Below are positions 24,765 through 64,000 of a stretch of 64,000 bases of DNA, one piece after another. This DNA comes from Ischnura elegans (lineage: Eukaryota > Arthropoda > Insecta > Odonata > Coenagrionidae). How positions within the stretch are numbered: position 1 is the stretch's first letter; the number at the start of each line of letters is the position of its first letter. Under the pieces are notes generated by a model, which did no database searches, was not told where the DNA came from, and worked only from the letters and a program-made list of their open reading frames with translations. A program made the translations under genes and the position numbers. Location of the stretch: contig NC_060257.1 of the NCBI RefSeq assembly GCF_921293095.1, forward strand, positions 60,486,968-60,550,967, read 5' to 3'.

Positions 24765-25175
24765 AAAATCAGGGACCTTTTCGACTCGCCAGACATAGTA
24801 GCTGAAGCGAAGAGCCGCAGATTGCGTTGGGAAAGGCACATAATACGAAGAGAGCAAGAGACCGCAGTAAAACAAGTCTAGGCAGAAAAATATTTAAGTA
24901 AACCGGGACTAGCCACGGTGATGACTTTTACGGAGCCACCCGCAATGCACAAATTGTGCGAAAAATCCACATGGGAAAACTCATTTGTCTCGACCGGATC
25001 CCTCGAGGCAGAAAACCCTGATGGAAGACGACCTCCAGGAAGAGCGAGAAAAAGATGGAAGGATAAAGTGCTGATTGTTAGGGAGGATATGGGAGTCAGC
25101 GAGGCGAATGCAGAAGTTAGAAAGAGTTGGAGGCAGACAGTTGACGAGGCTAAATACCATTTAGGGTATAAATGA
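24765..25175 (+). pseudogene. Non-LTR retrotransposon C-terminal fragment split by a SINE
   Basis: Left part 24765-24889: RKIRDLFDSPDIVAEAKSRR then LRWERHIIRREQETAVKQV. Right part 25016-25175: GRRPPGRARKRWKDKV, then SWRQTVDEAKYHLGYK and a stop. The SINE copy at 24890-25006 lies between the parts. A different LINE lineage from the other fragments, judging by RPPGRARKRW and AKYHLG. Confidence 0.7.
24890..25006 (-). mobile_element. 5'-truncated tRNA-core SINE copy inside a LINE fragment
   Basis: It is flanked by a 9-10 bp direct repeat (GGCAGAAAA) at 24881-24889 and 25007-25015. The family tail is at the left and the sequence breaks off inside the tRNA-like core at the right, so it is 5'-truncated in - orientation. 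The LINE reading frame resumes directly after it, which defines the insertion cleanly. Confidence 0.75.
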
Positions 25176-45711: not shown

Positions 45712-46005
45712 TTAAGAAATGTCATAGCTTTTCCTTCCACGCAATGAATCTTTAGAGTCATCCTTAATCACATTTGCCAATGGCATTTGGTTTTCTTCCC
45801 TGAAATTGATTTCTTTATCACAGCTTTCACCCTTTCGTCCAAAGCACGAACTGCAAGCTGTGTCCCCAGCACCGAATTTCTCTCCTTCCTCAATAGTTTG
45901 TGGCATAGGCTGGTTCAGAGTCTCTGGCAGGAGCAAAGACAGCAGTCCAGATGCAATGGATATTATTGCAAAAATTGTCGTCGGAAGCCTAGTGTCAACT
46001 GAATC
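45712..46005 (-). CDS. SLC22 last coding exon: TM12 and cytoplasmic tail
   Basis: The acceptor is TTAACAG. It encodes DSVDTRLPTTIFAIIS, a TM12, SLLLPETLNQPMPQTIEEGE, then a hydrophilic tail with ACSSCFGRKGESCDK, ending KSYDIS and TAA (45714-45712). A possible ATTAAA poly(A) signal lies at 45496-45491 on the - strand. Confidence 0.9.
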   Translation of the reverse strand, partial: DSVDTRLPTTIFAIISIASGLLSLLLPETLNQPMPQTIEEGEKFGAGDTACSSCFGRKGESCDKEINFREENQMPLANVIKDDSKDSLRGRKSYDIS

Positions 46006-49000
46006 CTGTTAATGAAACAGCAATGCATAAGCATCAACCTCAAGAAAAATTACTGCAAAATTATTCAATTTTCAATAGGAAATCGAGAGGGTGAAAATAT
46101 GCTACTGTTCCTTATAAACCTAGGGCAAGTTCAGGCAAGAAGAATTACCGTTAGCATATTGCTTCCTCATAAGATAAAACATAATGACATTCAAGGGTGA
46201 ACCCAGGATCCTAGGGGAGGGAAGCCATAGTCTGAGGGGTCAAGACAAGTTGTGACATTTTAGCATGAAAAAGGTGAATGAAACCAAAATTTTAATAAAA
46301 TTATAACAGCGCTTTTTTAGTTTATGAGATTATTTCCTCGAAAAAATAGTTTGATTATAGTTTCATATCTCATACTAATACATATCATTTTTCACAGGTT
46401 TAAAGAAAATTTGTTGAATACTTTCGTTTCAATTCAGTACTGATTTTGCTTAAAGACTTTTGCGATTTTTGCTTCTAGGGGGGGGCAGCTGCCCTCCCTC
46501 ACTGGGTACACCCATGATGACATTAGCTCTTCCAATATATAAGAAAAAATTGCTATCCATAACCCTGCCAAAATGACCAGGGGGAGCCAATCTGGTTTTA
46601 ACATTTCACCCACATCTCAAAACTATACATATTTCTTACTCATAGATAGGATATTGATGTATTTTAAACATTGTTCATCAGAAGCATTGGCGTAAATATG
46701 GGGGGGATGAGGAGGATAGATCCCCCCCGAAGCCTCAGAGAAATAAAAAAATATTCAAAACCATTGTCTACTTTTGACTTATAATAACTGCACCTGCTAA
46801 AAGTTAATTTTTTTAGTGCCAAAATTATGTAAAATGTATTTCCTGGCATGTCATTTTCCCAAACCCCCAAGGGGAGAAGGGGGAGTCACCACCCCAGATC
46901 ATCACATCCCCCCCAAAGCAATTCCTAGTTATGCCACTGATCAGAAGTACTTAAAGATATCTTGGACTTACTTCTATATTTCCTAAAACGTAAATTTTTA
47001 TAGGAACCATAATTGAAAAAGAGAATTAACCATACATGTGCCATCATTCTCACACAGAATCACTACAATTCAAGAACTTAATTTTCAAAAATTGAAAAAA
47101 ATGTTACAGGAAAGCAAGCTAGCCATTGAATACATGCAGACACCAGCTAATTTCCCTAAGTTACGGAGAAATCAAGAAATAAGTCAGAAAAAGGTTAAAC
47201 TTGGGCACCATTTATTCATATATAATCCTATGATAGTGACGTAGTAGGTCTACAGAAAGCATATGATGGCAATTGTAGGGGGATAGGTTGCAGAGCCTTA
47301 TGTGTCTAGGAGCAGCTAGTGGTGCAAATTAAATGGCTCTAAATTATTCACAGCAATGCTGGCACAAGATAAGGTCCTCTTATACTTATGCTTTTAGTTG
47401 CTTATAATTTTCTGATGGGGTGCAGCTTAATAAAAAGGGTGTCACTGTATTTTATGCATTTAAGATTTTCCCTGTTTGAGGCCAGAAAAAAATAGTGTGC
47501 AGCTTATACTTGGTGAAATGTGGTATAAATCAGATTAACATTATATCACTGACAAGGGGAGACCCTGAAACTTGCTCTGCCTTTTTCAATGCCGTATTTT
47601 TTATGGCCTTTGGAATGGTGAACACATCCCTGAACTAGTAGTGATTCCATTGAATGGGACTTAGTTTGGCTGTGTATCTTCGTATCTACGTATCTCCGTG
47701 TTTGAAATGACACTGCTTAAATACCTAAACGGCATTATGATGATAAAAAAATAGTCTCATATACATGCTCATGTATATCACAATGAAGGCAACAAAATAT
47801 ACAGCCATCACTGAGCCCCGAACCCTGGTCCCCTGGGTGGTAGCCGTAAACGCTTCCACTACCCCATCAGACCCGCCTGCTGAGTGGTGTGATATCATGG
47901 AATTATACGCGGCTTGTGAAAAGTACTGCACGAAAATTAATTAATTACAGCCAAACTAAGGCCCATTCAAAGGAACCACTACTTCTTCAGGGATGTGTTC
48001 ACCATTCCGAAGGCCATAAAAAATACGGCATTGAAAAAGGCGGAGCAAGTTTCGTGGTCTCCCCTTGTGAGTGAATTACCATCAAGAAGTGTCTTCTAAT
48101 TTTTTCGTAAGTTCTACTAGCTAAAAGGCTAACAGAGTAATGTAGAATATACTTACTAATAGGGATATCAATGGTGTCAATGCTCCGCTCAGACGAGCAA
48201 ACATACTGCCAACACCAAGGGCTGTATTCCTCACAACAGTAGGGAAAAGCTCAGCAGTGTAATTATATATAATTGCAAATGATCCTGCTATCATAAACTT
48301 CCCAATCATCACAATAGTGATAGCAGATACACTACCAGCCGAGGTGTCTGTAATAATGATGAATATTACATGGTAATTAATACCAGAGGAAAAGAAATTT
48401 ATACAGTGCACATACACACATTATTCTAGGTATGCTGAATTTTCCAAAAATTCAAATTTATAATTCTAAATTACCAGGTTAACACACAGATATAAACTGA
48501 AAATTCCCTGACTTTATAAACTAATTCCAAATTTTTCCAGAAATTTCCAGTTTGAAAGCCCCCTGAAAGAGATTTTTTTATGTGACCAAAGTGGATAACC
48601 AATTACTGTGGGTCAGCTGAGTTAACAGTAATGAAAGTTCTCAATGCATGATTTTCATCCGACAAAAATCATCTGATTGGGGTCCCAGATGACAAGCATA
48701 CATTCAAACCAATGAGCAGGCCACTATACAAGCAGTAACTCTGTACATGGCAAGGATAGTTAGATTTCTGCCATAGATGAATGTTTGTTCTTGATGCAAT
48801 GCTTTGAAAAAGAGGTGCTATTATTCGCTCGGATATAATGTTAAAAGTGAAATAAAATGTACCTACATAGGTATGAAACAGGTCAATGGTCGACAATGTG
48901 ACTTGGTGGAAATTAATCTTATAATATTAAGAGAGACAACAAAGAATTTTCCTCATTTTTTTTTTTTTAATTCAGCCGGTTCCAACATGCCTACTGTAAT

Positions 49001-52000
49001 TTTCAGGAGTTGTCTTTTAATAATGACAGCTCTTAAAAACGAAGTGAGGTACGACAAACTGGTTGATTTTTAATAATTATGATAATAATAATTTTATTGG
49101 ACACTAAATAAATTGAATTTGCAACAGTCTTTGTCATAAAATGCATCATTATACATTTGGAGAATAACAAAGGTAATGGGCAATGAAAAATAGACTACAG
49201 CATACCCTCGATTATCCGGCTGCGGTTTATCCGGGATGCGGATCATCCGTGCATGATTTTTACCCTCGCTCAATTTTTTTATGCGATCTTTATAAAAAAA
49301 ATAAAATCGGGCCCAAAATCATCGAAATTACTGCATTAATTCTAGGATAAACCGGGCTTATTATTTCCGTTAGAATCCCCTTCATAAAACCGAAGCGATC
49401 GCACGCTAGCTGCATTCACGGGAGCACCGTGTTTCTGTTTTCCAAGCCTCGCAGTTCGTGACCACGCTCCGCTAAAAAGATCGCAAACTGGCGAAGAAAG
49501 CTCTCATTGAGTCTGGGAAGCACTCTAAAATAACAGAATAACTGCATAAATAATAATACTTAGTTTATTTTAGGTAAATTATGTGCATTGCAAGACATTT
49601 AAGTGAAAGTTTGGGTCGTCCGTGTTTTCTAATTATTTGTGCCGTCTCTCCCCATCATTAGCATCGGGATAATCAAGAGTGTACTGTAGTTATAGACTAT
49701 GGAAAAAACATAAGTTATACACAATTATTCAGAAACAGATCAAATACATAATAATTACACAATAAGACAATATTAAATAACACCTTAGGACACCACAACG
49801 CTATCACATTCAAGAAATTCATGTGAAGAGAATATAGCTTTTTGAATAAGCCAGGAATGTACAAATGATTTAAATGTAGACACACATCCATAGCCTCTGG
49901 TGACATATCGACGAGATGACTTTTTGAAATATAAAAGAATAAATGTATTTTGCAATCTAAAGTAAGTTACATCAAGGGCATACCTATTCCTGGTATAATG
50001 TGTGATAAAAAGTGCGTAGCAATTTCCAAATTGGTAAAAAAGTATTGTAAGAGTAACTGTGTATCCTAATGTTGACAGTTACAACAGAGGGAATTTTGGC
50101 TGAGAGTGAGATAACGTCTTAGTGGGTACCTACCTATGCATTGATTCAGCAAAAAAGTTTGTCTCAGGCAAAGTACCCCTCGGAAATACATATTGCCAGT
50201 TTATGGGCTATTCTAAATTACGTAATTTCATATTTCGGGTACTTAATTCTAAAATTTCCCTGCGTTCACAGGAAATAAAGCTTACCTGACTATTCCTGAT
50301 CTTTAGAATTTTTTTTTAATTAGGAAAAAAAGAAAAATTTTTTTATAAATTTTAGATTTTATATAGAACCATTTTCCAATGATAATACATTATAACAGAA
50401 TAAAAGTGGCAAAAAATATAGTTATAGGCTGATTATATTAGGATTGAGAACAGAGACGGATTGAGATCATAGTTTTTAGGGGGTTAATAATTTTCTGCTG
50501 CCTTTTGGTGGTTTTCAATACCTCTTCGCAATTATACATCTGAGGTCTACTATGCATGGACAAGTGATGATTGTATTTGTTAAGTAATTTTAAACATTGA
50601 TTGATATGCTGTTGAAATATCTCATTTTAGAGCCACCTTAATGATTATCATTGTAGAGACAGAATGTGTAGCATTTATATAATGCGCTCTACTGTCAAAA
50701 GGCAGCACCGCCTTGAGGACCCTTGGCACCTTAAAATAATGGGACCAAGGCGCCAAAATTTGGCGCCCTTAGCCTAGCAGAAGCATCCCCGCATTGGGTG
50801 GAGAAGGACCCTTATTGCTTGTGCACGAAGATGTCTAAAATCCACGGCCATTGTGGAGTTTATTTAGTTTCTCAAGTTCTACGCTGGCTGTTGTTTAACA
50901 CTTAAAAAACTTGTTGTATTCAGAGTTCTGTTTATTTGGTTTAAGCTAGCATTCATAAACCCATTGACGAAAAATCCACAGAGGAAAAATCATTCGCCTT
51001 GACCGGGATTCGAACCCGGACCCCTCGATTTCCGGCCGAGTGCTTTAGCCAGTTAAGCTACTGAGGCGTCATTCTCCCCTGTGGAAATTTGTGGACTATA
51101 CCGGACAAGGTGGTATGGACTGCTGAGCATATTATGCGACTAGCAGTCCAGGTGGTGCGCATGGCACCACAGCCAGAGAGCAAAGCCCGAACTTTGAACA
51201 CGAGAGGTGTTCGCTCAAGACTTATTTAAGTATACCGGGACTAGCCACGGTGATAACTTTTACGGAATCACCCGCAATGCACAAATTGTGTGAAAAATCC
51301 AGTAAAGTCCACAATTTTCCACAGGGGAGAATGACGCCTCGGTAGCTTAACTGGCTAAAGCACTCGGCCGGAAATTGAGGGATCAGGGTTCGAATCCCGG
51401 TCAAGGCGAATTTGATTTTTCCCCTGTGGATTTTTCGCACAATGGAAATGAGGGTTATTATCTGTAATGATTTTCAAATTATTTTGCAGCAATGGAGCTA
51501 GTTGGGCCATCCATATGTGGCATAGGACCATATGTGGCATATCACTAGAGGACCATATGTGGCATATCATTTCAAGCAGTGTTTGCAGTTGGTGTGATGC
51601 TGGTTGCTTTTTGGGGATTCCTTATTCCTGACCGTCAGCTACTACAGGTTGTGTATGGACTCCACAGCCTGATTCTCATTGGCCATTGGTGGTAAGTGTA
51701 CTTTAACACTAGAACCGCTGAACTTTCCAACCCCACCAAAACCCCGGCATTGGACTTTTTTGTCCCATTGACAAAATACGTTGATCCTGCCATGTTTAAG
51801 TATAATTGACGGTTTTTTTGTGGTTTGTGTGAACAAAACACGTGTTTAGGTAATGTTTAAAACGTTTTATTAAGTATAACTAGGAATACAGTAAACTTAT
51901 TTTGACATGTTGGTTGCAAGCTCTGGGTTAGAATCCCGGTCAAGGCGAATGATTTTTCCTCTGTGGATTTTTCGCACAATTCGAGCGTTGTGAACTCGGG

Positions 52001-55000
52001 TGACTCCGTAAAAGTTATCACCGTGGCTAGTCCCGGTATACTTAAATAAACCCATTGACACTAAAATCACCTTTTCAATTTTTCCTTAACCCTCAAGCAC
52101 CTGATATTTTTACACGACTGGGTGCGTGGCATTCTTTGTCCATGATATACATATGCATTTATGATATAAATATATGCATTTATTTGATAACACTCGAATT
52201 TTGTTAAAATTTATCTGTATTTCTAAAAATTAGTTCAAGCTAATACATTAACACATTCAGTGCTAAGCACGTCAATTGACAAAGTGCCGTCCAAGCTGAG
52301 ATACGGAGAGTCGGTCGGGTCGGGAGCCCTTTCTCCGCCTCCGTACGTGACTGATGTCCACTTCCGTGTCTTCGGTTTGCATGTATGGCCTTCAGCAAGC
52401 TTTACTCTTTCGAAGTGTGTGCGCCATTCGTAAAAAGCAATATTTGAACGGAAGTTACAGCGCAAAAACCACTCTATTTTTCTTTCTTATTTTAACGGCC
52501 GATTTTGACTACTTTAATGAAAATCGGGCCCGCATTGAATATGTTAATAGGCAATACAGATATTAAGGTACACAGGAGGTATACGGCCGGTTGTGCTGCG
52601 TAATTTATAAATTACGGGTGTCTGGCTCCTCTTGGCGATCTAAAAACATTTTGCAGCAATGCTTTGCACTTTAAAAAACTCATGCTATCAACCGCCAAAA
52701 TGACATAGTGAGAATACAAAAGGCCATTCAAGAAAAGCATAGCACAAGGTACAGGGCCGGTCTTGAGGCGTACTTTGTACGCCACAGTTGTCGGTTCCTC
52801 TTGCCAGTCTAAAAATAAATTAGCTACAATATTTCGAGCTTTAAAAAGTCGCACTATAGACAATCAAAGTCCAATTTAAGAATACACAAGGCCATTCTAG
52901 ACCAGAACGTACGTAAAATGTTGAAATCCTTGGTTTTTTAAGATTGGCATATTTTATGCGCCAGCATGCCTGCTTGAGGGTTAACTAATGGGAAAAGGGT
53001 GGTCACCAATCACCCTTAATTCCCTATTGATCAAGAATCCACTTCTCAAGGATTGGAATGAGTGTCAATAAATTTTGCTACTGATCCATCATTAACCTAA
53101 GTACATAAAAACAATAGGTTGTCCAGAATTGGGGTTCATACCTTGCGGAATGTAGGCAGCAACTATGCAAGATAAACCACCAAGAACCATTAAGGTACTT
53201 ATTAGAGGACGTCTTCCAGTTCGATCCATCAGGTACACAGTCGTGGCATAGCTGGGCCACTCAACCAGCCCAACAAGGAAGAGGAGAAGAAATGGATTGC
53301 CAAAGAGTTTTCCTGTGTTCAATGATAGACCATAGTACACTATGCTGTTGGCAAACCTATGGAGTAACAAAGAAAAAGATTGGTCAATATGTGAGATAGG
53401 AATGTGAATCAATTTAATTCTCATTCATAGATTCTAAGTTTATTTAAGTTAGTTTAAGTTAAAAATATTTTATTTTATTTTCACACGTGCCTAATTTTCC
53501 CTCCCGTATCCAGAGATGTGTAAATTTCCTGCACACATGATGATGTGTTTAGCAAAGAGGGTGGTAGCTACCCACCCTCTACTCAGCCTTTCTCCAAGGT
53601 GTACACATTTCCACAGCAAACTGGGTTAAATAAATATGATATATACTCCTTTTAAAAAACTCTCTTTTACCATTGTCATATTCAATATTTAGTACCACTA
53701 TCTCTTTCACTTATTAATTCAACCTGGAGACTGGTGTAGCAATAGAACAAGTAGCATTTACTTGATGCATGCTATAGGTATGAAGTGAAACACTTTGCAA
53801 TTTCCACATAAAAATTTATTAAACTACAGTCGACATGTTTTGCTGCACTGCAGCATTATCAAGACTCTCGAAACATGTTGACTGTAGTTTAATAAAATTT
53901 TTATGTGGAAAGTGCAAAGTGCTTCACTTCATATCTCATAATGGATCTCCACAAAATACCTGCCTCATCCATCCAATTCAATGCATGCTAATGCAGAAAG
54001 GCCGCACTGCCCTCAGGAAGACAAATGTACTTGGTGCCTTAACATAACGGGACCAAGGATTTGGCACCCTTGGCCGAGGAGTAGTGTAACCTAATCAGTT
54101 GAAGAAATGGTACCTTATCACTTTTGAGAGACGACCACCAAAACTCGTGCCCATTGTGGAGTTTATTTAGGTTTTATTCAAGTTCTACACTAGCTGTAGC
54201 TTAACAACAATCAAACATTGTTAATTAAATATTATAATTCAGTTTATTTGCTCAACATGAGCATGCATAAATCCATAAGACTCTAAAGCTGGTCTGTGTA
54301 GTTGAGTATAGGATATACTCCGGTCTAAGCTACAGAAAAGTATATTTTATATATTCAGGGTAGGAGAGCCAGTTCTATTACCTGAACCAGCCCCTTACTT
54401 CAAGGACTATTGTTTGGGGTTTGCAGAGACTTCACCGAGGATTTTAACCATGGATCCTATGGTCAACAGCCTCGTGTTAAATTCACTGGGCTATCACCCT
54501 CCAAATCAGTTTCTTGGGATCATTATTACATGCATTACCAAGAGTATCCTCTCATTTCGAACAATTGACAGAGTAATCTATAGTAAAAATATTGGTGGAC
54601 AGGAACATGTATCAGCACAGAAATTTGATCCATTGAAAAAAACATGAAGCACAAGAATTCTTCACACATCGTAAAGGGATGCATAGCTCATGTGTACCAA
54701 CAGTCTAATTTATTGAAGTTTTCGCGGGCCATTGATTATGAATAAACTCCGTTTTTGGATTTTTTCTGCATATTTCTGTATCACTTCCACTGATGCCCCC
54801 CTTGCATTCTGGAGGCTTCCAAAAGGCATAATGGTGATATGATTGTTGTGGTTACGGGGGATGATTCTGCTACGGTTTACATGTTAAATCAAGGGTCTCC
54901 ATGTTTTGCAGCGCATTAGCCCCTGTGGCGGAGCTCTGAGTTTCGAGCACCACCACAAAGGACAGCCCCCTGGCTGAGGTAGTTGCCCTGGGACCCTGAG

Positions 55001-58000
55001 GTCCCTGCCAATGCCACCAGGGTACGAAGAGACACTCACAGAAAGTCAACGGAGAAGGACTTCTGTGCACAAGAGATGATAGTACACATCTGAATCGTTT
55101 GCCATCTGAATAAACGTGGTCGAAATTATTTCCATTTACATTATTGAAGTGAGGTTCATTATGGACATATTCCAACCCCTTCATTCCCTAATCTCAAGCC
55201 TGAATCAGACAATCATTTTTTCTATCCCTCAGAATTGTAGCTCCAGCAATAGGGACCAAAATGTGATCAATTGGCCCATCAATTTCTGAATCACATGATA
55301 ACTCCAACCATCCCATTTCTTATTCTGTTTGAAGGGGTTTGAGGATAGTTCTGTAATTGACCTGAGGCACAGAGCTCAGGGAAACATCTCTTAATAATCA
55401 CTTATTAAAACTGCCTGTGGTCGGAAAGTTTCCTTCGTTTTATAGGGTATTAATAATCCTCATTTCAGCCAAGCACTATCTGCTAGCAGAGTACTCTGCT
55501 AGCTGCTAGCAGCCTGCATCATGACGGCTCTCATAGCCTTGCACCAAGGTGGCCTCACACAGCAGCAGCCTGAACCAGAATGATGTCACATGGGCTTTTC
55601 CCTGCATTTATACTTAGCCGTATCATTTTTGTGCCCTTGAAAATTTTCACTTTTCATTTTATCGCAAAAAAAAAGATATCATCATTTAAAAATCTAAAAG
55701 CGTAAAATATGTACTCCAGGAGTAATAATAACCTTTCGATTTATGCAATAAAAAAATAATAGGACACCACCCTATTGTTAGTTGTATGATATTAGAATTA
55801 ATGTATTTAAGTATACTGGGACTAGCCACAGTGACTTTTTCGAAGTCACCCGCAATGCAAAAATTGTGGGGAAAATCTACACAAAAAAAATCATTCGCCT
55901 TGACCGGGATTCAAATCTGGATCTCACGATTTCCGGTTGAGTGCTTTAGCCAGTTAAGCTACCGAGGCATCATTCTCCCCTGTGGAACTTTGAGGACTAT
56001 ACCAGACAAGGTGGTTTTTGCACAATTTGTGTATAGCCGATGACTAACGTATAAGTTATCACTGTGGCTAGTCCCGGTATACTTAAATTGGTCTGGAGCA
56101 AACACTCTAGTCCAGTGGCACAGCCTGGGGGTATTTTGGGGGGTAAAACCCCCCCAGACCTCAGAGAAATTTGAAAATTTAATCCATAGTAATTAATTGG
56201 ATAAATATTACTTATAGAAAAGTGTAAGAATTAGTAAAATATCCCACTGAAAGCAGTAAAGCTCATATCTTATCTTAAAAATTTTCTGGGGGAGGGCTAC
56301 TGCACCTCCCGTATTCTATACCCCCAGTACTAGTTGCTCCCAGATCTCCCCCAGCCTTAATTCCCAGCTGCACACCTGCTCTAGCCTTTCAACGTCGTCT
56401 AGCCTTTTCTGTTTCTTACTTAGTTATTAGATAGAGAGATTTTATATTCATGTGTGAAAATATATAATGCTGCCAAAAGGCAATAGCCTACTTTCAGCAA
56501 TATGTAATAATAATTATAGTTGATTTGATGATCCGTACCAGTTAAGGGACACATTCAAGGTCTTCTTGCAGAGGTTTGGTGTTTTGAAGAGATCAAGGAT
56601 TCCACTCCCAGAGTTGGATCCCACTGGCCCCCCATTGCTCATGCTCCTTTCGTCCATCACCCTGCCCTTTGAGACGTAACGAGTAACATCGAGAGGGGCT
56701 TCGTCCGACTCCCTTTTCTTCTGATTAATGAGTAATGCCTTCTTCACCACTGCTACGGCTTCCTTCGTGCGACCCTGGCTCCACAGCCAACGAGGAGACT
56801 CATCTATCAGCCTGAAAAGTCAATCGAATATCAGGAGACCATCTTTTAAAGTAGACCATGGGCTTTTAAAGAGGTGAAATTAAGGGCATGGCAAATCATT
56901 CGAGCCAATCAAATAAGTTACTATCACATATCTATTTTCAGAATGGGGCAGTATCAAAAATAGGTACTAGTACGATAGTAGTAAATAGAGGTATGGTATT
57001 TGGAGGAGGGGACCGACAGCTGAGGTCATATGCGCCATGAGGGAAGGGTGTGGAAGGAAGGGTGGCGAGAAATCCAGCGTCGGCATTAGCCTCCTCTTAA
57101 CGAAAGGTGCCAAGGGGACCACGGCTTAACGTCCCATCCAACGGACGGAGTGTTGCGCTTGAAATGTCCTCCACACAACATTCAAGCAGGGATCGGGCAA
57201 TCTCTGAAAATTCTCTGCCACTGCCGGGATTTGAACCCGAGCCCACCGGGTGGGAAGCCAACACTCTAGCCACCACACCAACCCGATCCCCATAGATAGA
57301 GTATATAAGAAATATACTCTATTAAAACTTTTAAAATAGTGCATTTTGCATAAGAAATATGCACACTTTCTGGAAGAATTTCCCATACAACTAAACCAGT
57401 TTCTACTAAGCCAACAAGGGGACTCATCTATCAGCCTGAAATGTCAATTGAATATCAGGAGACCATCTTTTAAAGTAGTCCATGAGCTTTCAAAGAAGTG
57501 TATTCAATTGGAAATTTCAATTGAATTCAATAGAAAGCGCCAATATTCAATCAAATTTCCTCATATCTCTAACTTTGTCACTTTTCAATCGAATGCAATT
57601 GAATAATTCCAATAGGGATGGCAAATCATTGGAGCCACTCAAAGAAGTTACTATTATCTATTTTCAGAGAGGGGCAGTATCAAAAATAGGTACCTACTTG
57701 TGAGCAAAAGAAATATATAGGTACTCTATCAAAACTTTTAAAATATGTATTTTGTATTAGAAATGTGTACACTTTATGGAAGTATTTTCCTTATAACTAA
57801 ACCCATTTCATGATTACACTAAGCTAACTATGTAAATATTTAGTAATTCCAAATGTATTTAAATGAAAATACATAAAAATAAAACCTCTATAAAACAGCC
57901 AATTCCTGGGGAAAATGGCTGTTTGGAGGGGTGGCCATTTAATGGAAATTTTCAGAGTAAATTACAAAATACTAATGAGCATTTACAAAATATGATTGAG

Positions 58001-61000
58001 AAAGTGAAGAGGCATGTTCAGCAGAAAATGAAATATTGTTTCAGTTTTGGACAACTATATGTAAATGTCTAAAATATATACATAATCTTTAAGCTTAATT
58101 AAACGATGGATTTGAGGAAGTACATACAGCAATACGATTGTGCAATCACACCAATTTTGAGATTCATTGTTTCACATTGTTTCAAGACAAATTTCTGTTT
58201 TGACCTATGTCTAAGCATTTACAAAATATTGTCTGTTGTAATGCATCCATCCCCAAGGGCCCTACCCTGCACTACAATGCCACTGAGGTACGGCCCACAC
58301 TGTTAGCCAGGGACTTACCCTCCACCCTCTTCCCGCACTTACACGTAGATAGTACTTTTTCTACCCCTAAAAACTTAATTGAGGGTCCTCAGTACTTAGG
58401 GCCCTTGGGGCATAGGTTCCTGTTTCCTTAAAGTAACCAAATTTTATTCCGTGAAGATTAACCTATTTGGAACATTATGAGACTAGGAAAAAGTAAGTTT
58501 TCTCAATTCAGAAAAAATAAAGGCCGGCCTACTGTCCATTCGTCCAGTAGCTTAGGAGTCATCCAGTAACTAAGTATCCATCTCAGTAACTAAGGAGCGG
58601 TAACCCCTTGTTTATGGGCATAAAAAATGCTTAAATTTGTCTCCCCTACCACCTCCTGAAGTACTGCAGATTCTTCCTGAAACACCGTGTATAATCAAGG
58701 GAATACCCCAGATCGAAATAGTCGGGAGTAGAGAAAAGAGGGAGGAGGTTGGCAAGCCATGGTCATTCAGGTTGTGATATTTTGGCTGGGAAAAGGCGAA
58801 TATAGCCACAATTCTAAAAAATATTATGCAAAATTTTATCAGTGCTTTATTAGTTGTTACAATAATTTTCTTGAAAAAATATTTTTATTCTATATATTCA
58901 TCTGAGATTAACAATGCATGCATGTGGCACAGAGCTCAGGGAAAGATCTCTTAATAATCACTTATTATAATTGCCTATGGTTGGAAGGTTTCCTTCGTTT
59001 AATAGGGTATTCATAATCCTTATTTAATCCAAGTGTTACCTGCTATCATAGGTAGATTCATACTTATATGTCACATTTTCGCGCCCTTAAAAATTTTCAC
59101 TTTTCATTTGATTGTGAAAAATAGATATTGTCATTTCAAAATCTAAAAGTGTGAAATACTTACTCCAGGAGTAAAGGAGGCATACTCTTTCCATTTAGGC
59201 AATTAAAAAAAAAATAGGAAACCACCCTATTGTAGATGCCAGCAGGAAAGGGTTAAAACTTTTTTTTTAAGGGGGCTAGCTGTTCCCTTCCCAACCCCTT
59301 GCTGGGTACAGCCATTAATATATCAATGAATTATCCACAGGCATGGCAATGTTTGCAAGGTTTTGCCAATGTAATATAACACTAGAACCGCGGACAGGAC
59401 TTTTTAGTCCCATCGCCCTTTGCAAATGTTTGCCATTCATGTACTAGTGGTATGATCTCTTTGAAATTTACTGACTTTTACTCATTTTTTATGCTCTTTC
59501 GAATGGTTACATTGAAATTTTTTTATGATGTTTGGTTCGCGAGAAAAACGACGATTTACCTGGAACTGCGGGATGGGACTTTTTTGTCCCATATGGGGAA
59601 AACATACAATTTGTTTTTTTTTGAACACTTATTTTGTATTTAGCATAATAACAGTTTATTACACAGGGGATCGATGCACAGATACCGTTATTCTGCCAGT
59701 TAGAAGCGCAGAAGGGAATAGGTAATCTGTACACTGCGCCGGCCACCGACTCACGCAGCGCCGGCCGCGTCACCTCTGCCCGGCGCGTCTGCAGGTCTGA
59801 GGTTGCAACCAACACGTCAAAATAAGTTTACTGTATTCCTAGTTATACTTAATGAACGTTTTAAACATTACCTAAACACGTGTTCTGTGCACACAAACCA
59901 CAAAAAAACCTTCAATTATACTTAAACATGACAGGATCAATGTATTTTGTCAATGGGACAAAAAAGTCCCATGCCGCGGTTTTGGTGGGGTTGGAAAGTT
60001 CAGCGGTTCTAGTGTTAAAGTACACTTACCACCAATGGCCAATGAGAATCAGGCTGTGGAGTCCATACACAACCTGTAGTAGCTGACGGTCAGGAATAAG
60101 GAATCCCCAAAAGGCAACCAGCATCACACCAACTGCAAACGCTGCTTGAAATGATATGCCACATATTGTCCTCTTGGATGGCCCAACTAGCTCCATTGCT
60201 GAAAAATAATTTTAAAATCATGACAGTTTATGACTCTCATTTCCATTGTGCAAAAAATCCACAGAGGAAAAATCAAATTCGCCTTGAGCGGGATTCGAAC
60301 CCGGATCCCTCGATTTTCAGCAGAGTGCTTTAGCCAGTTAAGCTACCGAGGCATCATTCTCCCCTGTGGAAATTTGTGGACTATACCGGACATGGTGGTA
60401 TGGACTGCCGAGCATATTATGTGACTAGCATTCCAGGTGGTGTGCATGGCGCCACAGCCGGAGAGCAAAGCCCGAACTTTGAACATGAAGAGGTGTTCGC
60501 TCTAGACTTATTAAGTATACCGGGACGAGCCGCGGTGACTCCGTAAAAGTTATCACCACGGCTAGTCCTGGTATACTTAAATCTCATTTCCATGTTTCAA
60601 ACTCATCTTTATTTTTAAGCTGAAGGTATATGGACCTATTAGGCGGAAACGAGGAAATTTTTTTGTGTTTCAGCTGCCCACAGCCCACCACTAAGAGCTA
60701 TCATGCGATTGAAAATACTATTTGTCCAGTATTCAATTATTTGAATCGTGGAGTCTAGTTATTCACTTGTTTTCATCTGCTAGCAACCATGCTGGCATAG
60801 GCCCCAGGGTTGAGGTGCTTCAGTCATACTGCCTTGTGTTCGACACCTGACCAAGGAGTTAGTTGTGCTCTGCAATGGCGTAACTAGGAATATGCTTTGG
60901 GGGGGATGAGGGGGCATGGGAGGGGGACACCCCCCCCTAGGCAACTTCTGGGAAAATAAGAAAAAATGACTTGCCAGGAAATACATTTTACATCACTTTG

Positions 61001-63913
61001 GTTCTAAAAATTTAACTTTAAGCAGATGCAGTTATTATATGTAAAAATAGGCAATAGTTTTAAAATACTTTTTATCCATCTGAGGCTTGGGGGGGAATCT
61101 ATCTTCCCATCCCCCCATAGTTACGCCACTGGTGCTTTGATGTCTCATTGATACACTCATCTCAAAGTGGACAACTATCGTGTTGTTTTTTAATTTGTTC
61201 TTTGAGTTAATCCCGCCAAAACTATTTATTATGTCTTTTGTTTGTTTTATATGAACGTTATTTGAAATGTGGGTAAAGAATAAAAAACTACACTTCCTGT
61301 GCGTTTTTCAAGATGTCGAGATGATTCTTTAGTGTGGTGATAAATATCGCTCAGCAACCTTTTAATCTTAACATAACGTTGACTTTGCTTCTAGTAACCA
61401 CTCCACTCATATTACAGCCACATGTAAGCTCCTATACCACCACCCCTACGGAAAGGCTGTATCCGGCTGCTACCAGCCCCAACGAGAATCTATGGTAAAG
61501 TGCTCTGAGTTTCTCTATTGTTGTATTGTGATATTACCCTCTATTAAATGCGGTATTATAATGCACTACATACAGACCACTTAATTCTCTGAACCCCACG
61601 CTATATATGTAGTATTTCCAATTTCTCTGCTATTATGTACAATCACACCTTCTAAATGTTTTTCAATTCTACTTTTTTATTATTGTACTGAAAACTAATT
61701 TTATTTTTAACATAAGGTATCATGATATGACCTCATTAAAAATTACTTATCCCAGCCCTGAAATTACCTTGCTTACTCTCCCCAAGAAATATAATCAATA
61801 CATGCAACTGCAATGAATAAATATGGTACATTTTTCATTAACCCTTTCACTGCTGTGAACGTAGTACCTGGTATGTTCGCACGGCAGGCTGCTGTGAACG
61901 TACCTTTTCTTCCTCCCTGCTATGCACTAAGCACTTTTGCTGAAGCACTCTGAAGGGTCGCTAATCCTGAACCCTTTCCTCGACGAGCTCACCCTCGCTG
62001 GCCCCTCTCTTTGACCCTCCGAGTGGGGCCTCCCTCCCGAAAAGTGACCGCTCTGACTGCATTTTGAAAATCTATCAATTAAATCGATCATCAAAAAATG
62101 ATTGTTTGCATCACACTCCTGCCAATTAAGCTCGTCATAACCAATCAAGTACATCTTTTAACTGTGTTTCTGCGATGAAAAATAACAATTTTGTTAAATT
62201 TGCTAAAAACGTAGCTGCAGACCAACACAAAATGGCCATTTTAGCAAAGTTAACAAAATCCTTACTTTTCATCGCAGAAACACGGTTCAAAGACGTACTT
62301 GATTGCTTGATTGGCAGGAGTGCAATGCAAACAATCATTTTTGATGATCGGATTGATTGATAGATTTTCAAAATGCAGTCAGAGCGGTCACTTTTGGGGA
62401 GGGGAGGTCCCCCGCTCGGAGGGTCGAAAAGAGGGGCCAACGAGCTCCTCGAGGAAAGGGTCTTGGATTTGTGACCCTTCGGAGGGTGTACTACGCCCAT
62501 CCTGGAAGTAACTGCTCCATGGCTCCAATAAACGCATTTTAACCTTTTTGCTGTATGTGAGGAGAAGGTTTTCGGAGATTAAACAGCAGTGAAAGGGTTA
62601 AGTGAGCATAGTAAACCAGTGGCTAGAGCACTTGTCAGCTTATCAAGGGGTCCCAGGTTCAAATCCTAGGTGAAACCCTGGGATGACCCTAAACAAAATC
62701 CTCTCAATACAAAGTGGCCCAGGGAAATTAACTGGCCCTCCTGCCCTGGATGTATGAAATTCACACCAGTGGCTTAGTATGGGGTGAGCTCGACCATCAC
62801 CTATCCCAGTGGTTCCCAACCTTTTCTCCTCCCTTACCCCTCTATATGCATGTAACTAATGTTGTACCCCCAAAAATATAACATGCACAATTTATTACAT
62901 AATTTCATTACAGGTGGGTGACACTTTTAGTTATAAATAATTGTATAAATAGAAACTTTGATTTAAATACCCCAAATAATATGTGCACATACTTCCTGGT
63001 TAAGATTTATGGCACACCACTACTGCCAGACTACAATGATAGGCCATTAAGGAATGCAGCGTCAGCCATAACCAATTATTTTCGGCACACCACTGATCAT
63101 TTCATCGCGTATCCCTAAGGAATTTGCGTACCACCACTTGGGCACCACTGACCTACCCAAACCAACCCTCGGGTTGAATAATTGAAGTGATCAAGTGATT
63201 TTTCACTAAGCATACATCATCAGTGGCGCCGACTCCATGGGGCTTGAGGGGGCTCAAGCCCCCTAAAATATTCATTATGGGTGTGAGGAAAAAATGTGTC
63301 AGGCTTGTCAATTATCCCTGGAGTGTCCAGATATTGAGATTCGAGTTATCAGGGTTGTAATGTTGATCATATGACTCTTCTAAAATGCTTAAAAAACTTA
63401 CCGTATTTCTCCTAATATAGTCCCCCTCTGAATATAGTACCCCCCTCCCTAATTTTGAGGCTTGAGTTTCAGGAAAAAATTAAAAAAATGGGTTTGAATA
63501 CAGCCCTCCCCTTTACTTTTATCATGGACATTTTTGGAAAAAAAAGGGGGGACTATATTCAGACAAATACGGTAAAACTCACTACATATAAAATTTCCCG
63601 GGGCAAGATCCCCGGTTTGGGCCCCCCAATATTTTTCGCAAGTCGGCACCCCTGTACATCACACTTATTACAAATCCTGTAATGCATTAGCGGGCTGAAT
63701 CAAATATTGTATAAGGTGAGTGGTTTTTCATTTAACTCACGTCATACTTACTTATCACAAATCCGGTAATGTATGAGCCAGCCGATCCAAATATTCCAAA
63801 GAGGTATCGGATGAATAGGAAGGAGTAATATTCAGGAATAAAAGCAACTCCCACACCCAACAGGAGTTGCAACACAGCCGAGATATAAAATATATTTTTT
63901 CTCCCAAATCTGT
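45712..63913 (-). CDS. SLC22-family organic cation/anion transporter (MFS), 3' six exons; 5' end outside window
   Basis: Family knowledge: SLC22 proteins are 12-TM plasma-membrane transporters of organic cations, anions or carnitine. Exons in gene order: 63913/63909-63752, 60198-60030, 56811-56539, 53356-53142, 48347-48157 and 46005-45712. All have GT donors and AG acceptors and every phase joins, giving about 433 residues to TAA. Visible in order: the loop 2-3 motif DRFGRK; TM3-TM4 with FGSAGSYITGF; the signature MELVGPSKRT; TM5-TM6; DESPRWLWSQGR; the cytoplasmic loop 6-7; TM7-TM9 with DRTGRRP; TM10-TM11 with YNYTAELFPTVVRNT; TM12; then LPETLNQPMPQT and a Cys/Lys-rich tail. TM1-TM2 and the large first extracellular loop are missing to the right. 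Substrate cannot be told. Introns are full of transposons, and a broken inverted copy of the second exon lies in an intron at 51.5 kb. Confidence 0.9.
46685..46939. mobile_element. hAT-like MITE in SLC22 downstream/last-intron region
   Basis: 8-bp duplication ATCAGAAG (46677-46684, 46940-46947). Ends CATTGGCGTAAATATGG and CCTAGTTATGCCACTG. Same family as 60873-61131, in opposite orientation. Confidence 0.8.
47546..48074. mobile_element. Foldback element with 127-bp inverted arms and tRNA-like centre
   Basis: Left arm 47546-47672 and right arm 47948-48074 are inverted copies with scattered mismatches. The centre carries a - strand tRNA-like stretch with GGGGTAGTGGAAGCG and CCAGGGTTCGGGG (about 47810-47875). 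It lies about 80 bp beyond the SLC22 TM10-TM11 exon donor. Confidence 0.6.
48157..48347 (-). CDS. SLC22 exon: TM10-TM11
   Basis: The acceptor is ATTACAG and the donor TTA|GTAAGT. It encodes DTSAGSVSAITIVMIGKF, YNYTAELFPTVVRNTALG and ARLSGALTPLISLL. A 530-bp inverted-repeat element ends about 80 bp past its donor. Confidence 0.9.
49198..49686. mobile_element. pogo/Tigger-like MITE in SLC22 intron
   Basis: Ends CAGCATACCCTCGATTATCC and the inverted counterpart ATAATCAAGAGTGTACTG, flanked by TA (49196-49197, 49687-49688). The CTCGATTATCC terminus is characteristic of pogo-type elements. No transposase frame is visible. Confidence 0.8.
50690..50954 (+). repeat. Dispersed repeat, host of the chimeric insertion
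   Basis: Shares GGGACCAAGG, CCATTGTGGAGTTTATTTAG and CAAGTTCTAC with 53994-54262. It ends at the target site of the 50969 insertion and resumes at 52046. A weaker relative lies near 42795-42900. Confidence 0.6.
50996..51067 (-). other. tRNA-like SINE core
   Basis: 72 nt with near-complete cloverleaf pairing and box B GGGTTCGAATCCC. The anticodon loop reads CCGGAAA, with C where U33 belongs. It is repeated in several SINE copies with the same flanks, so it is a SINE promoter, not a tRNA gene. Confidence 0.65.
51336..51407 (+). other. tRNA-like SINE core (second copy, + strand)
   Basis: Starts GCCTCGGTAGC and ends TCAAGGC. Same family as the core at 50996-51067 and inverted relative to it. 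It was carried along with SLC22 intron sequence in the chimeric insertion. Confidence 0.65.
51495..51692 (+). pseudogene. Inverted, broken copy of the SLC22 TM5-TM6 exon
   Basis: Starts CAATGGAGCTAGTTGGGCC after an intact acceptor TTTTGCAG and ends at an intact donor TGGTG|GTAAGT. It is nearly identical to the real exon at 60198-60030 but on the opposite strand. A segment around ATATGTGGCATA is present three times, and the expansion brings an in-frame TAG (VAYH then stop). Lying antisense inside the SLC22 transcription unit it cannot contribute to that mRNA; the pre-mRNA could, however, form a long hairpin between the two copies. Confidence 0.85.
52090..52980. mobile_element. piggyBac-like (TTAA) non-autonomous element in SLC22 intron
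   Basis: TTAA at 52086-52089 and 52981-52984. Termini CCCTCAAGCA and TGCTTGAGGG. It contains two related internal blocks (about 52560-52720 and 52745-52880). No transposase frame. It begins 30 bp past the chimeric retro-insertion. Confidence 0.7.
53142..53356 (-). CDS. SLC22 exon: TM7-TM9
   Basis: The acceptor is CCATAG and the donor CAAG|GTATGA. It encodes FANSIVYYGLSLNTGK, then FLVGLVEWPSYATT, VYLMDRTGRRPLIST and LSCIVAAYIPQ. The open frame continues past the donor into intron sequence, but the join to the next exon (PQ-DTSAG) is phase-correct. Confidence 0.9.
53779..53933. repeat. Inverted repeat, about 62-bp arms
   Basis: Arms 53779-53840 and 53871-53933 share TAAACTACAGTCGACATG-like sequence and ATGAAGTGAA. 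The loop of about 30 nt includes GCTGCACTGCAGC. It resembles a single-sided repeat that folded back. Confidence 0.7.
53994..54262 (+). repeat. Dispersed repeat related to 50690-50954
   Basis: Collinear with 50690-50954. Near 54262-54290 it retains the uninterrupted version of the insertion site. Confidence 0.6.
54300..55360. other. SLC22 intron, unidentified sequence
   Basis: Short frames at 54414-54647 (+) and 55184-54870 (-) show no family motif and are not supported by splice joins. Probably repeat-derived. Confidence 0.4.
55363..55776 (+). repeat. Dispersed repeat, copy 2 of 3
   Basis: Same family and orientation as 9265-9687, nearly full length and collinear. Lies in an SLC22 intron. 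Confidence 0.7.
55799..56092 (-). mobile_element. tRNA-core SINE-like element with inverted tails at both ends
   Basis: Both ends carry the family tail in opposite orientation (TATTTAAGTATACTGGGAC at left, GTCCCGGTATACTTAAAT at right). The tRNA-like core lies between on the - strand (about 55890-55975). No convincing target-site duplication is seen, so it may be older or mobilised differently from the copy at 60 kb. Confidence 0.6.
56113..56378. mobile_element. hAT-like MITE in SLC22 intron
   Basis: 8-bp duplication CTCTAGTC/CTCTAGCC with one mismatch (56105-56112, 56379-56386). Starts CAGTGGCACAGCC. The body matches 38512-38814 throughout. Confidence 0.75.
56539..56811 (-). CDS. SLC22 exon: cytoplasmic loop 6-7
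   Basis: The acceptor is TTTTCAG and the donor AACTG|GTACGG. It starts LIDESPRWLWSQGRTKEA, then a Lys-rich helix KKALLINQKKRES, a Gly/Ser linker and LFKTPNLCKKTLNVSLNW. The frame stays open 5 codons past the donor, but joining to TTTGCC of the next exon restores the family WF sequence. The first bases and the acceptor are repeated in a tandem duplication near 57.4 kb. Confidence 0.88.
56985..57290 (-). mobile_element. Second tRNA-derived SINE family, copy 2 (in SLC22 intron)
   Basis: Same family as 18228-18545. The tRNA-like head at its right end has B box GGGTTCAAATCCC. It interrupts the first copy of a tandem duplication that includes an SLC22 splice acceptor. A short direct repeat ATAGAG lies at both sides. 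Confidence 0.65.
57497..57617. mobile_element. Short insertion related to the 36 kb TIR element
   Basis: The right end AATTCCAATAGGG matches the 36 kb element terminus and the body contains the same CAATTGAA motifs. The sister copy of the tandem duplication (near 56865) lacks it, showing the unfilled site. The left end is diverged or rearranged. Confidence 0.5.
57831..58902. other. SLC22 intron, nothing recognised
   Basis: AT-rich. The 58245-58430 part is GC-richer, without a motif. Confidence 0.4.
58903..59235 (+). repeat. Dispersed repeat, copy 3 of 3, internally deleted
   Basis: Same family as 9265-9687, missing about 80-100 bp in the middle. SLC22 intron. Confidence 0.65.
59380..60014. 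mobile_element. piggyBac-like (TTAA) element adjoining an SLC22 splice donor
   Basis: Termini CACTAGAACCGC and GCGGTTCTAGTG, with ATAA at left (59376-59379, presumably a mutated TTAA) and TTAA at right (60015-60018). Internal hairpins repeat GGACTTTTTAGTCCCAT-like units. Its right end is about 10 bp past the donor of the TM5-TM6 exon. Part of it was carried to 51.7-51.9 kb in the chimeric copy. Confidence 0.7.
60030..60198 (-). CDS. SLC22 exon: TM5-TM6 with MELVGPS signature
   Basis: The acceptor is TTTTTCAG and the donor TG|GTAAGT. It encodes (T)MELVGPSKRTICGISFQA through LILIGHWW. It is tightly boxed in: a TTAA element starts about 10 bp past the donor and a SINE-like insertion lies about 50 bp before the acceptor. 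It is the source of the inverted pseudo-exon at 51495-51692. Confidence 0.9.
60247..60581 (+). mobile_element. tRNA-core SINE-like insertion with inverted 5' part
   Basis: A 12-bp target-site duplication, TCTCATTTCCAT, flanks it at 60235-60246 and 60582-60593. A tRNA-like core lies on the - strand (about 60281-60352) with box B GGGTTCGAATCCC. The + strand right end is the sense tail ending GGTATACTTAAA. The inverted 5' block joined to a sense 3' block is what LINE twin priming produces. It lies in the intron just upstream of the SLC22 TM5-TM6 exon and predates the chimeric copy at 51 kb. Confidence 0.7.
60873..61131. mobile_element. hAT-like MITE in SLC22 intron
   Basis: 8-bp duplication GTGCTCTG/GTGCTTTG with one mismatch (60865-60872, 61132-61139). 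Ends CAATGGCGTAACTAGG and ATAGTTACGCCACTG. Same family as 46685-46939. Confidence 0.8.
61842..62597. mobile_element. Foldback piggyBac-like (TTAA) element with arms over 200 bp
   Basis: TTAA at 61838-61841 and 62598-62601. Termini CCCTTTCACTGCTGTGAACG and CAGCAGTGAAAGGG. Almost all the interior is one diverged inverted repeat: arms about 61935-62205 and 62235-62500, centred near 62220. The open frames here (for example 62135-62500) are mirror images of the arms, not genes. Confidence 0.75.
62612..62690 (+). repeat. tRNA-like SINE head
   Basis: CCAGTGGCTAGAGCACTTG (A-box-like) and CCAGGTTCAAATCC (B-box-like) in tRNA spacing on the + strand. It follows directly after the TTAA element. The body downstream to about 62800 may belong to it. 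Confidence 0.45.
63221..63654. mobile_element. hAT-like MITE hosting a nested MITE
   Basis: 8-bp duplication TACATCAT/TACATCAC (63213-63220, 63655-63662). Ends CAGTGGCGCCGACTCC and GTCGGCACCCCTG. A TA-flanked MITE sits inside it (63401-63572). A sister copy at 43536-43770 lacks that inner element. Confidence 0.8.
63401..63572. mobile_element. Tc1/mariner-type MITE (TA target) nested in a hAT-like MITE
   Basis: Ends CCGTATTTCTCCTAATATAG and the inverted counterpart ending CAGACAAATACGG, with TA on both sides (63399-63400, 63573-63574). The paralogous unfilled site near 43727 has a single TA. Confidence 0.8.
63752..63913 (-). CDS. SLC22 exon: loop 2-3, TM3 and TM4
   Basis: It encodes DRFGRKNIFYIS, a hydrophobic TM3, then FIRYLFGIFGSAGSYITGF. 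The donor is A|GTAAGT. The acceptor is ambiguous between TTTGAG (start 63913) and GACAG (start 63909), because the two differ by 4 nt and the preceding exon is off the window. Confidence 0.85.
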
Positions 63914-64000
63914 CTCAAAGAAAAAGAATGAAAAAGTAAGTTCATTGCCTAAATTCTTACAAACCACAAAAGTTTAAATAGAATACCATGATGAACTTGA

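What the first reader, a model, noticed from the sequence alone, without database searches (positions are those of the whole stretch)
50969..52045. An SLC22 exon was captured in a chimeric, template-switched retro-insertion and placed inverted in the same gene
Seen: a 14-bp direct repeat (ATAAACCCATTGAC) bounds about 1.08 kb containing inverted SINE blocks, a copy of the SLC22 TM5-TM6 exon with both splice sites and flanking intron, and a SINE 3' end. The copy includes the junction with the SINE at 60247-60581 (with its ATGGAAATGAG duplication), so it was made after that SINE inserted. The source is unspliced. Inference: LINE reverse transcriptase started on the SINE tail, jumped to SLC22 pre-mRNA, then produced an inverted 5' part (twin priming). 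Pol III read-through is less likely because T5-T6 runs follow the tRNA core. The copy is recent: apart from a triplicated segment I count about two exon differences.
Basis: partly seen in the sequence, partly recalled or inferred. Interest (0 to 1): 0.85.

Follow-up and report, generated by a model that had tools for sequence, protein, structure and literature searches.

The report
Locally captured exon in inverted retroelement
A small jumping element that usually lands as a back-to-back inverted pair copied a now broken exon from a nearby part of the same transporter gene while inserting, and three other insertions of this element also hold sequence copied from close by, suggesting a route by which genomes duplicate short local pieces.

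Summary
A 14-bp duplication bounds 1,077 bp with an SLC22 exon and flanking intron, copied from 60,246–59,801 of the same gene and placed inverted. A two-base insertion in the source element's tail occurs in the genome only in source and copy, so source and direction are firm. The exon copy has an in-frame stop.

The reading needs changing. The inverted 'SINE' blocks are not an event-specific twin-priming accident: 33 of 40 sampled family copies are antisense arm | sense arm, one outer end at a fixed site (E1), the other ~66 nt further on (E2), mostly inside ~12–13-bp duplications. That is the anatomy of Penelope-like elements (tail on one inverted end, two internal RT starts), which this genome carries. 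LINEs were not searched.

Capture is mostly local: of five family insertions with foreign interior over 100 bp, four hold copies of sequence 0.34, 0.63, 1.0 and 7.8 kb (SLC22) away; the fifth is a dispersed repeat, perhaps a later insertion. Likely mechanism: Penelope-type dual-primed insertion whose middle gap was filled from neighbouring DNA or nascent RNA. The enzyme, and DNA versus RNA, are unproven.

The parts
50955..50968 (.). left copy of 14-bp target-site duplication ATAAACCCATTGAC
50969..51301 (-). antisense arm of the element, outer end E1 (unit ~321), through tRNA-like, body and tail to unit ~311 of the next unit
   Evidence: win50; tRNA-like 50994-51068 minus
51298..51301 (.). turnaround between arms, microhomology about TCC(A)
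   Evidence: overlap of the two blocks; sequence
51298..51441 (+). sense element part with tRNA-like (51335-51409) and E1 tail, carrying the private TT insertion (21-mer at 51402-51422) shared only with the source element
51442..51452 (+). ATGGAAATGAG, one copy of the source element's own target-site duplication, captured with it
51453..51489 (+). captured 3' end of SLC22 intron with AG (7 of 37 bases differ from the source)
51490..51691 (+). captured SLC22 TM5-TM6 exon copy; 33-bp internal repeat at about 51514-51546 with in-frame TAG; opposite strand to the gene
51692..51922 (+). captured 5' splice site, about 10 bp of intron and about 220 bp of a TTAA-bounded MITE that lies there in the source
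51922..52045 (+). sense arm: from the T-arm of the tRNA-like (unit ~269) through the tail to outer end E2 (CGGTATACTTAAAT)
   Evidence: win50
52046..52059 (.). right copy of 14-bp target-site duplication
59801..60246 (-). source of the capture in the same gene (exon 60030-60198, introns, MITE from TTAA at 60015-60018)
60247..60582 (-). source-side element, itself an inverted E1/E2 copy with its turnaround in the 'hairpin'; TSD copies at 60236-60246 and 60583-60593
   Evidence: win60
55807..56105 (.). another, more diverged inverted copy of the family in this gene (both outer ends called E2 by the script, no TSD found)
24891..24997 (-). single-arm E2 fragment of the family
45712..63914 (-). SLC22 gene: exon-like frames at 63732-63914, 60030-60198, and within 56514-56819, 53092-53424, 48121-48420 and 45712-46008
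   Evidence: reading frames; TIGR00898 3e-77 for the joined translation

Best explanation
The insert is one member of a non-autonomous family with a tRNA-like core (probably Pol III transcribed) that integrates by Penelope-type dual priming: both target strands are cut, each 3' end starts reverse transcription on a sense family RNA, one at internal site E1 and the other about 66 nt further at E2, giving an antisense arm and a sense arm that are joined in the middle (architecture shown; enzyme and reaction inferred). In this event the E2-started arm stopped at the tRNA-like T-arm (unit ~269), and the middle gap was filled by copying about 445 bp or more of the same SLC22 gene, whose near edge lies 7.8 kb away, running from a MITE back through exon and intron into the neighbouring element's tail, before joining the other arm by microhomology (order of pieces shown; order of synthesis inferred). 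Filling from the close chromosomal neighbourhood recurs in this family (4 of 5 foreign interiors examined). Template: local DNA used during repair of the gap (my choice, about 0.5) or nascent unspliced SLC22 RNA (about 0.4). The copied exon is not usable as it stands (wrong strand, in-frame stop).
For: TSD and ends. Private TT mark in only 2 places of 1.72 Gb against 1,077 exact unmarked 32-mers, absent from 96 family segments and from the insert's other two element pieces. Family architecture: one E1 and one E2 outer end in 33 of 40 positional-sample copies, none of the 40 with two alike, 28 of these 33 with an exact TSD of 8-16 bp; 16 of 20 in an E2-chosen sample, 9 of these 16 with TSD of 8 bp or more. 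Tandem arrays of the 324-325-bp unit inside arms. Penelope-like elements in the same genome: RVT_1 + GIY-YIG in one frame; three fetched copies are palindromes with roughly 30 bp extra on one side only and 13-17-bp exact repeats at their edges. Published match: two adjacent internal RT starts that correspond to the 'tail', both strands cut and extended (PMC11167929, parts 1-2 of 4); host DNA and intron-containing genes framed by Penelope repeats (PMC3846280). Local capture besides SLC22: C1, 113 bp 100% identical, 0.63 kb from the element's edge; C6, 116 bp 98%, 1.0 kb, no other genomic match; C8, 167 bp 90%, 0.34 kb; each in a 12-13-bp TSD. Background: 44 of 990 random 120-mers of the window have such a match within 10 kb, 27 of the 44 lying in the insert, its source or the source element.
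Against: No sequence similarity between the family's ends and the two Penelope-like families examined and no hammerhead match in the unit, so the driving enzyme is not identified. A fifth foreign interior, L066 (531 bp inside an 8-bp TSD), is a dispersed repeat (84% to part of L106) ending in a TTA run with no second copy in the 2.8 kb fetched; it may be a later insertion or a non-local capture. The C1 capture also has a 95% match 0.6 Mb away. Two copies outside the 40 were called E1/E1 (L032) and E2/E2 (window 55807-56105) by the script. Left-intron divergence (7 of 37) exceeds the other non-coding parts and is unexplained. One base upstream of the tRNA-like (A in the copy and in 17 of 96 family segments, T in the source) hints that the start of the sense part may come from a family RNA rather than from the source element.
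Confidence: 0.6

Rival explanations
1. One reading: a LINE reverse transcriptase started on the SINE tail, jumped to SLC22 pre-mRNA, and twin priming inverted the 5' part.
For: Variable-length TSDs and an unspliced gene-sense copy fit; chimeras of LINE-1 with other RNAs are published (PMC13174262, outline and abstract only).
Against: Outer ends are paired, one E1 and one E2, in 33 of 40 copies, while twin priming as I know it gives one fixed and one variable end. In copies such as L062, L070 and L073 both arms cover the same unit region, which one single-unit template cannot give. No poly-A or simple-repeat tail at the ends printed. No LINE was searched for.
Confidence: 0.16
2. A plain element inserted first; later a break in its T-arm was repaired by invading the inverted copy about 8 kb away (element-element homology), copying the exon and returning by end joining.
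For: The sense element part meets the source exactly through element homology, and the right piece restarts at the T-arm; the distance is short.
Against: No element match was found at the C1, C6 and C8 sources, so element homology is not needed for local capture.
Confidence: 0.08
3. The template was the nascent SLC22 pre-mRNA tethered near the insertion site rather than DNA (a variant of the best explanation).
For: The source lies upstream of the insertion in gene direction and is unspliced; the copy is gene-sense on the strand expected if the E2-started cDNA copied sense RNA; Penelope elements are reported to move intron-containing genes (PMC3846280).
Against: Only one strand relation could be judged; of four local captures two are direct (C1, C8) and two inverted (SLC22, C6) relative to their sources; transcription of the other three sources is unknown.
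Confidence: 0.35
4. Assembly artefact or inverted haplotype join.
For: None found; no reads were available.
Against: Exact TSD, private changes on both sides (copy-private 4, source-private 7, shared 0 in the MITE part), and the same anatomy in dozens of other loci.
Confidence: 0.02

Closest known systems
Penelope-like elements (EN+ PLE, Penelope/Poseidon type)
   Same: Inverted terminal arrangement, tandem copies, a tail on one of the two inverted ends, short TSDs, both strands cut and extended with two internal RT starts, capture of host DNA and unspliced genes (PMC3846280 abstract, passages and discussion; PMC11167929 parts 1-2 of 4).
   Different: No ORF, tRNA-like core, tail about 66 nt instead of about 30-40, no hammerhead match, no shared end sequence with the two PLE families examined here.
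tRNA-derived SINEs mobilised by LINEs
   Same: Short, non-coding, tRNA-like core, over 2,500 exact E2 24-mers in the genome, short TSDs.
   Different: The tRNA-like lies inside a tandem unit; most copies have two inverted arms with two fixed outer sites; no LINE-type tail seen.
LINE-1 chimeric insertions, transductions and twin priming
   Same: Single-event chimeras of element and other RNA (PMC13174262, outline and abstract only).
   Different: Inversion is the usual form here, and four of five foreign pieces come from within 10 kb of the target.
Templated insertions at DNA breaks
   Same: Filler copied with microhomology, also in inverted orientation (PMC11724301, abstract only: local foldback insertions mostly about 5-34 bp).
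   Different: Here 113 to about 445 bp and placed between two cDNA arms.
Retrozymes (PMC4918200, search listing only)
   Same: Non-autonomous retroelements.
   Different: Those bear hammerhead ribozymes; no ribozyme match in this unit; arms inverted.

Membership tests
Penelope-like element (as non-autonomous member) | Inverted terminal parts with a tail on one side only | tested here: met
   33 of 40, none of the 40 with equal ends; 16 of 20; outside these, L032 and window 55807-56105 were called with equal ends
Penelope-like element (as non-autonomous member) | Tandem or partial-tandem copies | tested here: met
   324-325-bp unit arrays, e.g. L019-L023 and L027
Penelope-like element (as non-autonomous member) | Short TSD | tested here: met
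   28 of 33 with exact TSD of 8-16 bp; 9 of 16 in the E2 sample
Penelope-like element (as non-autonomous member) | Own ORF with RT and GIY-YIG | tested here: not met
   the unit is 324 bp; autonomous families elsewhere in the genome have both domains
Penelope-like element (as non-autonomous member) | End sequence shared with an autonomous PLE | tested here: inconclusive
   no similarity to the two PLE families examined, scores within shuffles; other PLE families not tested
Penelope-like element (as non-autonomous member) | Hammerhead ribozyme in the pLTR (common, not universal) | tested here: not met
   no hammerhead match up to E 5 in L023 and L027; only tRNA reached its gathering score
Penelope-like element (as non-autonomous member) | RT starts at two internal RNA sites | not testable with these tools
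   inferred from the two fixed outer ends
LINE-mobilised tRNA SINE | tRNA-like promoter region | tested here: met
   Rfam tRNA up to 55 bits, ARAGORN; promoter activity not tested
LINE-mobilised tRNA SINE | One RNA 3' end at one side of the insertion and a variable end at the other | tested here: not met
   37 arms start at E1 and 36 at E2 of 75 arms in the positional sample
LINE-mobilised tRNA SINE | 3' end shared with a LINE | not tested
   no LINE search was made
Twin-primed LINE insertion | Inverted part is an upstream RNA segment not covered by the sense part | tested here: not met
   arms cover the same unit region in, e.g., L062, L070, L073; a multi-unit RNA could mimic this

The most novel reading that the evidence does not exclude
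A tRNA-headed, Pol III type SINE family is mobilised by a Penelope-type enzyme instead of a LINE, landing as a rule as two head-to-head cDNA arms, and when the arms fail to meet the gap is bridged by copying sequence from within a few kilobases of the target, which makes this element a generator of short local duplications, exons included. The recurrent arm stop one base 3' of T-loop A58 (unit 280) would further mean that its RNA carries the tRNA methylation at that site.
Probability: 0.47. Interest if true: 0.78.

Novelty: new variant of a known kind. Interest (0 to 1): 0.62.

Why it matters
If right, it breaks the rule of thumb that SINEs depend on LINEs, gives over a thousand natural products of the poorly understood Penelope integration reaction (two starts, both strands), and shows a mechanism that duplicates nearby exons and other sequence in either orientation. 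Because captures are mostly local, the same genome can decide whether the gap is filled from nascent RNA or DNA. I found no paper on Penelope-mobilised SINEs in the listings, which cover only an open-licence library.

Tried and rejected
Foldback or TIR DNA transposon: rejected because arms are of unequal length, turnarounds vary, the two ends differ (E1 versus E2) and TSD length varies. The 'hairpin' of the source element is that copy's turnaround. Circular-RNA retrozyme: no ribozyme match. Rfam hits to miRNA families in L108 coincide with its palindrome centre. Comparison of the family's ends with PLE families A and B gave scores within shuffles. The exon alone gave no Pfam hit. Short fillers of L098 and L068 had no second match in their own loci. 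The interior of L127 looks like degenerate unit sequence by eye. Not followed: a filler of about 18 nt at C19:89211520 and single-arm loci of the samples.

Rows dropped or handled apart: only the first two blocks of L035 and L066 and the last two of L088 were used. L066 was looked at again: its third block makes it an E2/E1 copy (so 34 of 40 with it) with a 531-bp foreign interior that I had first left out; it is now counted as the fifth, not local, case, and I lowered two odds slightly for it. L111 and L113 share a TSD and may be one duplicated locus. Foreign interiors in the lists were judged by eye from the first 80 letters of each side.
Full report
Setting. The window is G000:C12:60486968-60550967 of an unnamed 1.72-Gb genome. 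On its minus strand lie reading frames of an SLC22-type transporter gene at 63732-63914, 60030-60198, and within 56514-56819, 53092-53424, 48121-48420 and 45712-46008. Their joined translation matches TIGR00898 (cation transport protein) at 3e-77, 260.5 bits, under that model's curated cut-off; the 60.1-kb exon alone matches SLC22A3 (7zh0_A) weakly and gave no Pfam hit.

Observation. The 14-mer ATAAACCCATTGAC occurs twice in the window, at 50955 and 52046, and bounds 1,077 bp. Copy 51298-51922 aligns to the complement of 60390-59800 with 559 identities, 32 mismatches, a 33-bp and a 1-bp gap. It holds the element tail, the element's own target-site copy ATGGAAATGAG, 37 bp of intron, the exon, the 5' splice site and about 220 bp of a TTAA-bounded MITE that sits there in the source. 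The exon copy is on the plus strand, opposite to the gene, with three substitutions and a 33-bp repeat that brings an in-frame TAG.

Source and order. The source element's tail has a two-base insertion. The 21-mer carrying it occurs twice in the genome, in source and copy, against 1,077 exact copies of the unmarked 32-mer; it is absent from 96 family segments and from the insert's own left arm and right piece. In the MITE part the copy has 4 changes and the source 7 (one a deletion) against the consensus of 28 other MITE copies, none shared. So the copy was made from this locus after the element and the MITE were in place, and soon after. Divergence between source and copy: 12 of 144 in the element part, 10 of 230 plus one gap in the right intron and MITE, 7 of 37 in the left intron; the last is high and unexplained.

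What the 'SINE' is. The family has a 324-325-bp unit with a tRNA-like core (unit 222-295; up to 55 bits in Rfam). Taking 40 clusters in order along contig C1 from the first 100 of 1,077 places listed (three clusters already held were left out), 33 of 40 have an antisense left arm and a sense right arm, with one outer end at E1 (unit ~324) and the other at E2 (unit ~66, about 66 nt further along the RNA); none of the 40 has two alike; 7 of 40 were single-armed or unclear to the script, one of which (L066) is a clear E1/E2 copy on a second look. Of the 33, 28 have an exact duplication of 8-16 bp, most often 12-13. Of 20 loci chosen by the E2 sequence alone, 16 show the same, 9 of them with a TSD of 8 bp or more. 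Of the 20 loci, picked from search hits, 17 do; L020 and L037 had one outer end unclassed and L032 was called E1/E1. The diverged copy at window 55807-56105 was called E2/E2. Long copies contain arrays of the unit in the arms, about 13 units in all in L019. The source element at 60247-60582 is one of these inverted copies: its 'hairpin' is its turnaround.

Inner ends. In the positional sample inner ends cluster at unit 196-213 (14 of 73 classed arms), 254-267 (12), 278-283 (11) and 291-301 (8); no formal test was made. The first is about 20 nt before the tRNA-like, where a Pol III transcript would start (recalled). The third is at T-loop A58 (unit 279), the usual site of m1A in tRNAs (recalled); the other two clusters are not explained by this. 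Of 36 E2-started arms 31 are long enough to cross both T-runs, so these runs do not prevent RNA from reaching E2.

Why Penelope-like. Penelope elements are bounded by inverted pLTRs with a 31-bp tail optionally on one of them, with TSDs of 8-10 bp in the examples I read, and carry captured host DNA and intron-containing genes (PMC3846280: abstract, passages, discussion). A purified Penelope protein cuts and extends both strands and starts at two adjacent internal RNA sites, which accounts for the tail (PMC11167929: parts 1 and 2 of 4). That matches the E1/E2 rule. The same genome holds such elements: 149 GIY-YIG matches of the 150 scored candidates, among which I count by eye 16 minus-then-plus pairs within 5 kb and saw no plus-then-minus pair; an L104 frame has RVT_1 and GIY-YIG; three fetched copies (L108-L110) are palindromes of about 1.45-2.1 kb with roughly 30 bp extra on one side and 13-17-bp exact repeats at the edges. 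Against: no end similarity between the tRNA-like family and the two Penelope families examined and no hammerhead match. I therefore say it works like a Penelope insertion; membership is not shown.

Local capture. Besides SLC22 I met four insertions with foreign interior over 100 bp. C1:9695288 (L115, one of the 20 E2-chosen loci; seen again) carries 113 bp identical to C1:9696184-9696296, 0.63 kb from the element's edge, same strand; a 95% match lies 0.6 Mb off. C6:93146248 (from 50 listed of 99 elements with 150-180 nt between anchors) carries 116 bp, 98% identical to C6:93145009-93145124, 1.0 kb away, inverted, with no other genomic match. C8:50520460 (from 40 elements with 225-255 nt) carries 167 bp, 90% identical to C8:50519923-50520089, 0.34 kb away, same strand; I had predicted a local source before fetching it, but only 3.8 kb were searched. 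These three lie inside exact duplications of 12-13 bp. The fourth, L066, has a 531-bp interior within an 8-bp TSD; 472 bp of it match a dispersed repeat also in L106 (84%), it ends in a TTA run, and no second copy lies in the 2.8 kb fetched: a non-local capture or a later insertion. With SLC22 (7.8 kb to the near edge of the source, inverted) that is 4 local of 5. Of 990 random 120-mers of the window 44 have a match of at least 90 bp and 88% within 10 kb, 27 of these in the insert, its source or the source element. No element match was found at the C1, C6 and C8 sources, so element homology does not select them. Captures are not frequent: one in the 20, and in the 40 of the C1 sample only L066 has an interior over 27 bp among the classified copies.

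Mechanism. I propose: Penelope-type cutting of both strands; antisense arm from E1; sense arm from E2 stopping at the T-arm; failure of the arms to meet; synthesis across the gap on a nearby template (SLC22 locus from the MITE back through the exon into the neighbouring element, with a slippage making the 33-bp repeat); joining at TCC. Shown: order of pieces, ends, TSD, source, distance. Inferred: enzyme, RNA start, direction, DNA or RNA template. The mixed orientation and short distances lean to DNA; the unspliced gene-sense strand fits RNA too.

Verdict. The single chimera is a curiosity; the family rule and the local captures are the interesting part.

Noticed in passing
L108 (C2:47392500-47395900), 634-2759: Penelope-like copy that is a 2,126-bp palindrome at 99.9% identity with about 34 bp extra on one side; L109 and L110 are similar.
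   Followed up: partly
L019 (C2:43031600-43036600), L020, L021, L022: Inverted arrays of the 324-325-bp unit, about six units in each arm in L019, which has an 11-bp TSD.
   Followed up: partly
family unit position 278-283: Arms of independent copies stop repeatedly next to T-loop A58 (11 of 73 arms), a possible genomic trace of m1A58 blocking reverse transcription; other clusters exist.
   Followed up: partly
L066 (C1:21852800-21855600), 1281-1811: 531-bp dispersed repeat with a TTA run inside an E2/E1 copy, joined at unit 265/269 without a visible duplication of unit sequence.
   Followed up: partly
window 51453-51489 versus the intron piece next to 60198: 7 of 37 bases differ in the short intron piece next to the exon, above the other non-coding parts.
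   Followed up: no
window 51702-51922 and 60018-59801: TTAA-bounded MITE family; 38 further copies scored at 94-98% of 548 first-look candidates.
   Followed up: partly
window 39597-39668 (minus) and 43801-43873 (minus): A tRNA-Asp gene and another tRNA match (31 bits) not examined further.
   Followed up: no
L035 (C7:102336000-102344000): The same inverted element three times at 3.4-kb spacing, so probably a tandem block.
   Followed up: no
L111 and L113 (C1:1.96 Mb and C1:2.33 Mb): Same element blocks and TSD in opposite orientation about 0.37 Mb apart, so probably a duplication.
   Followed up: no
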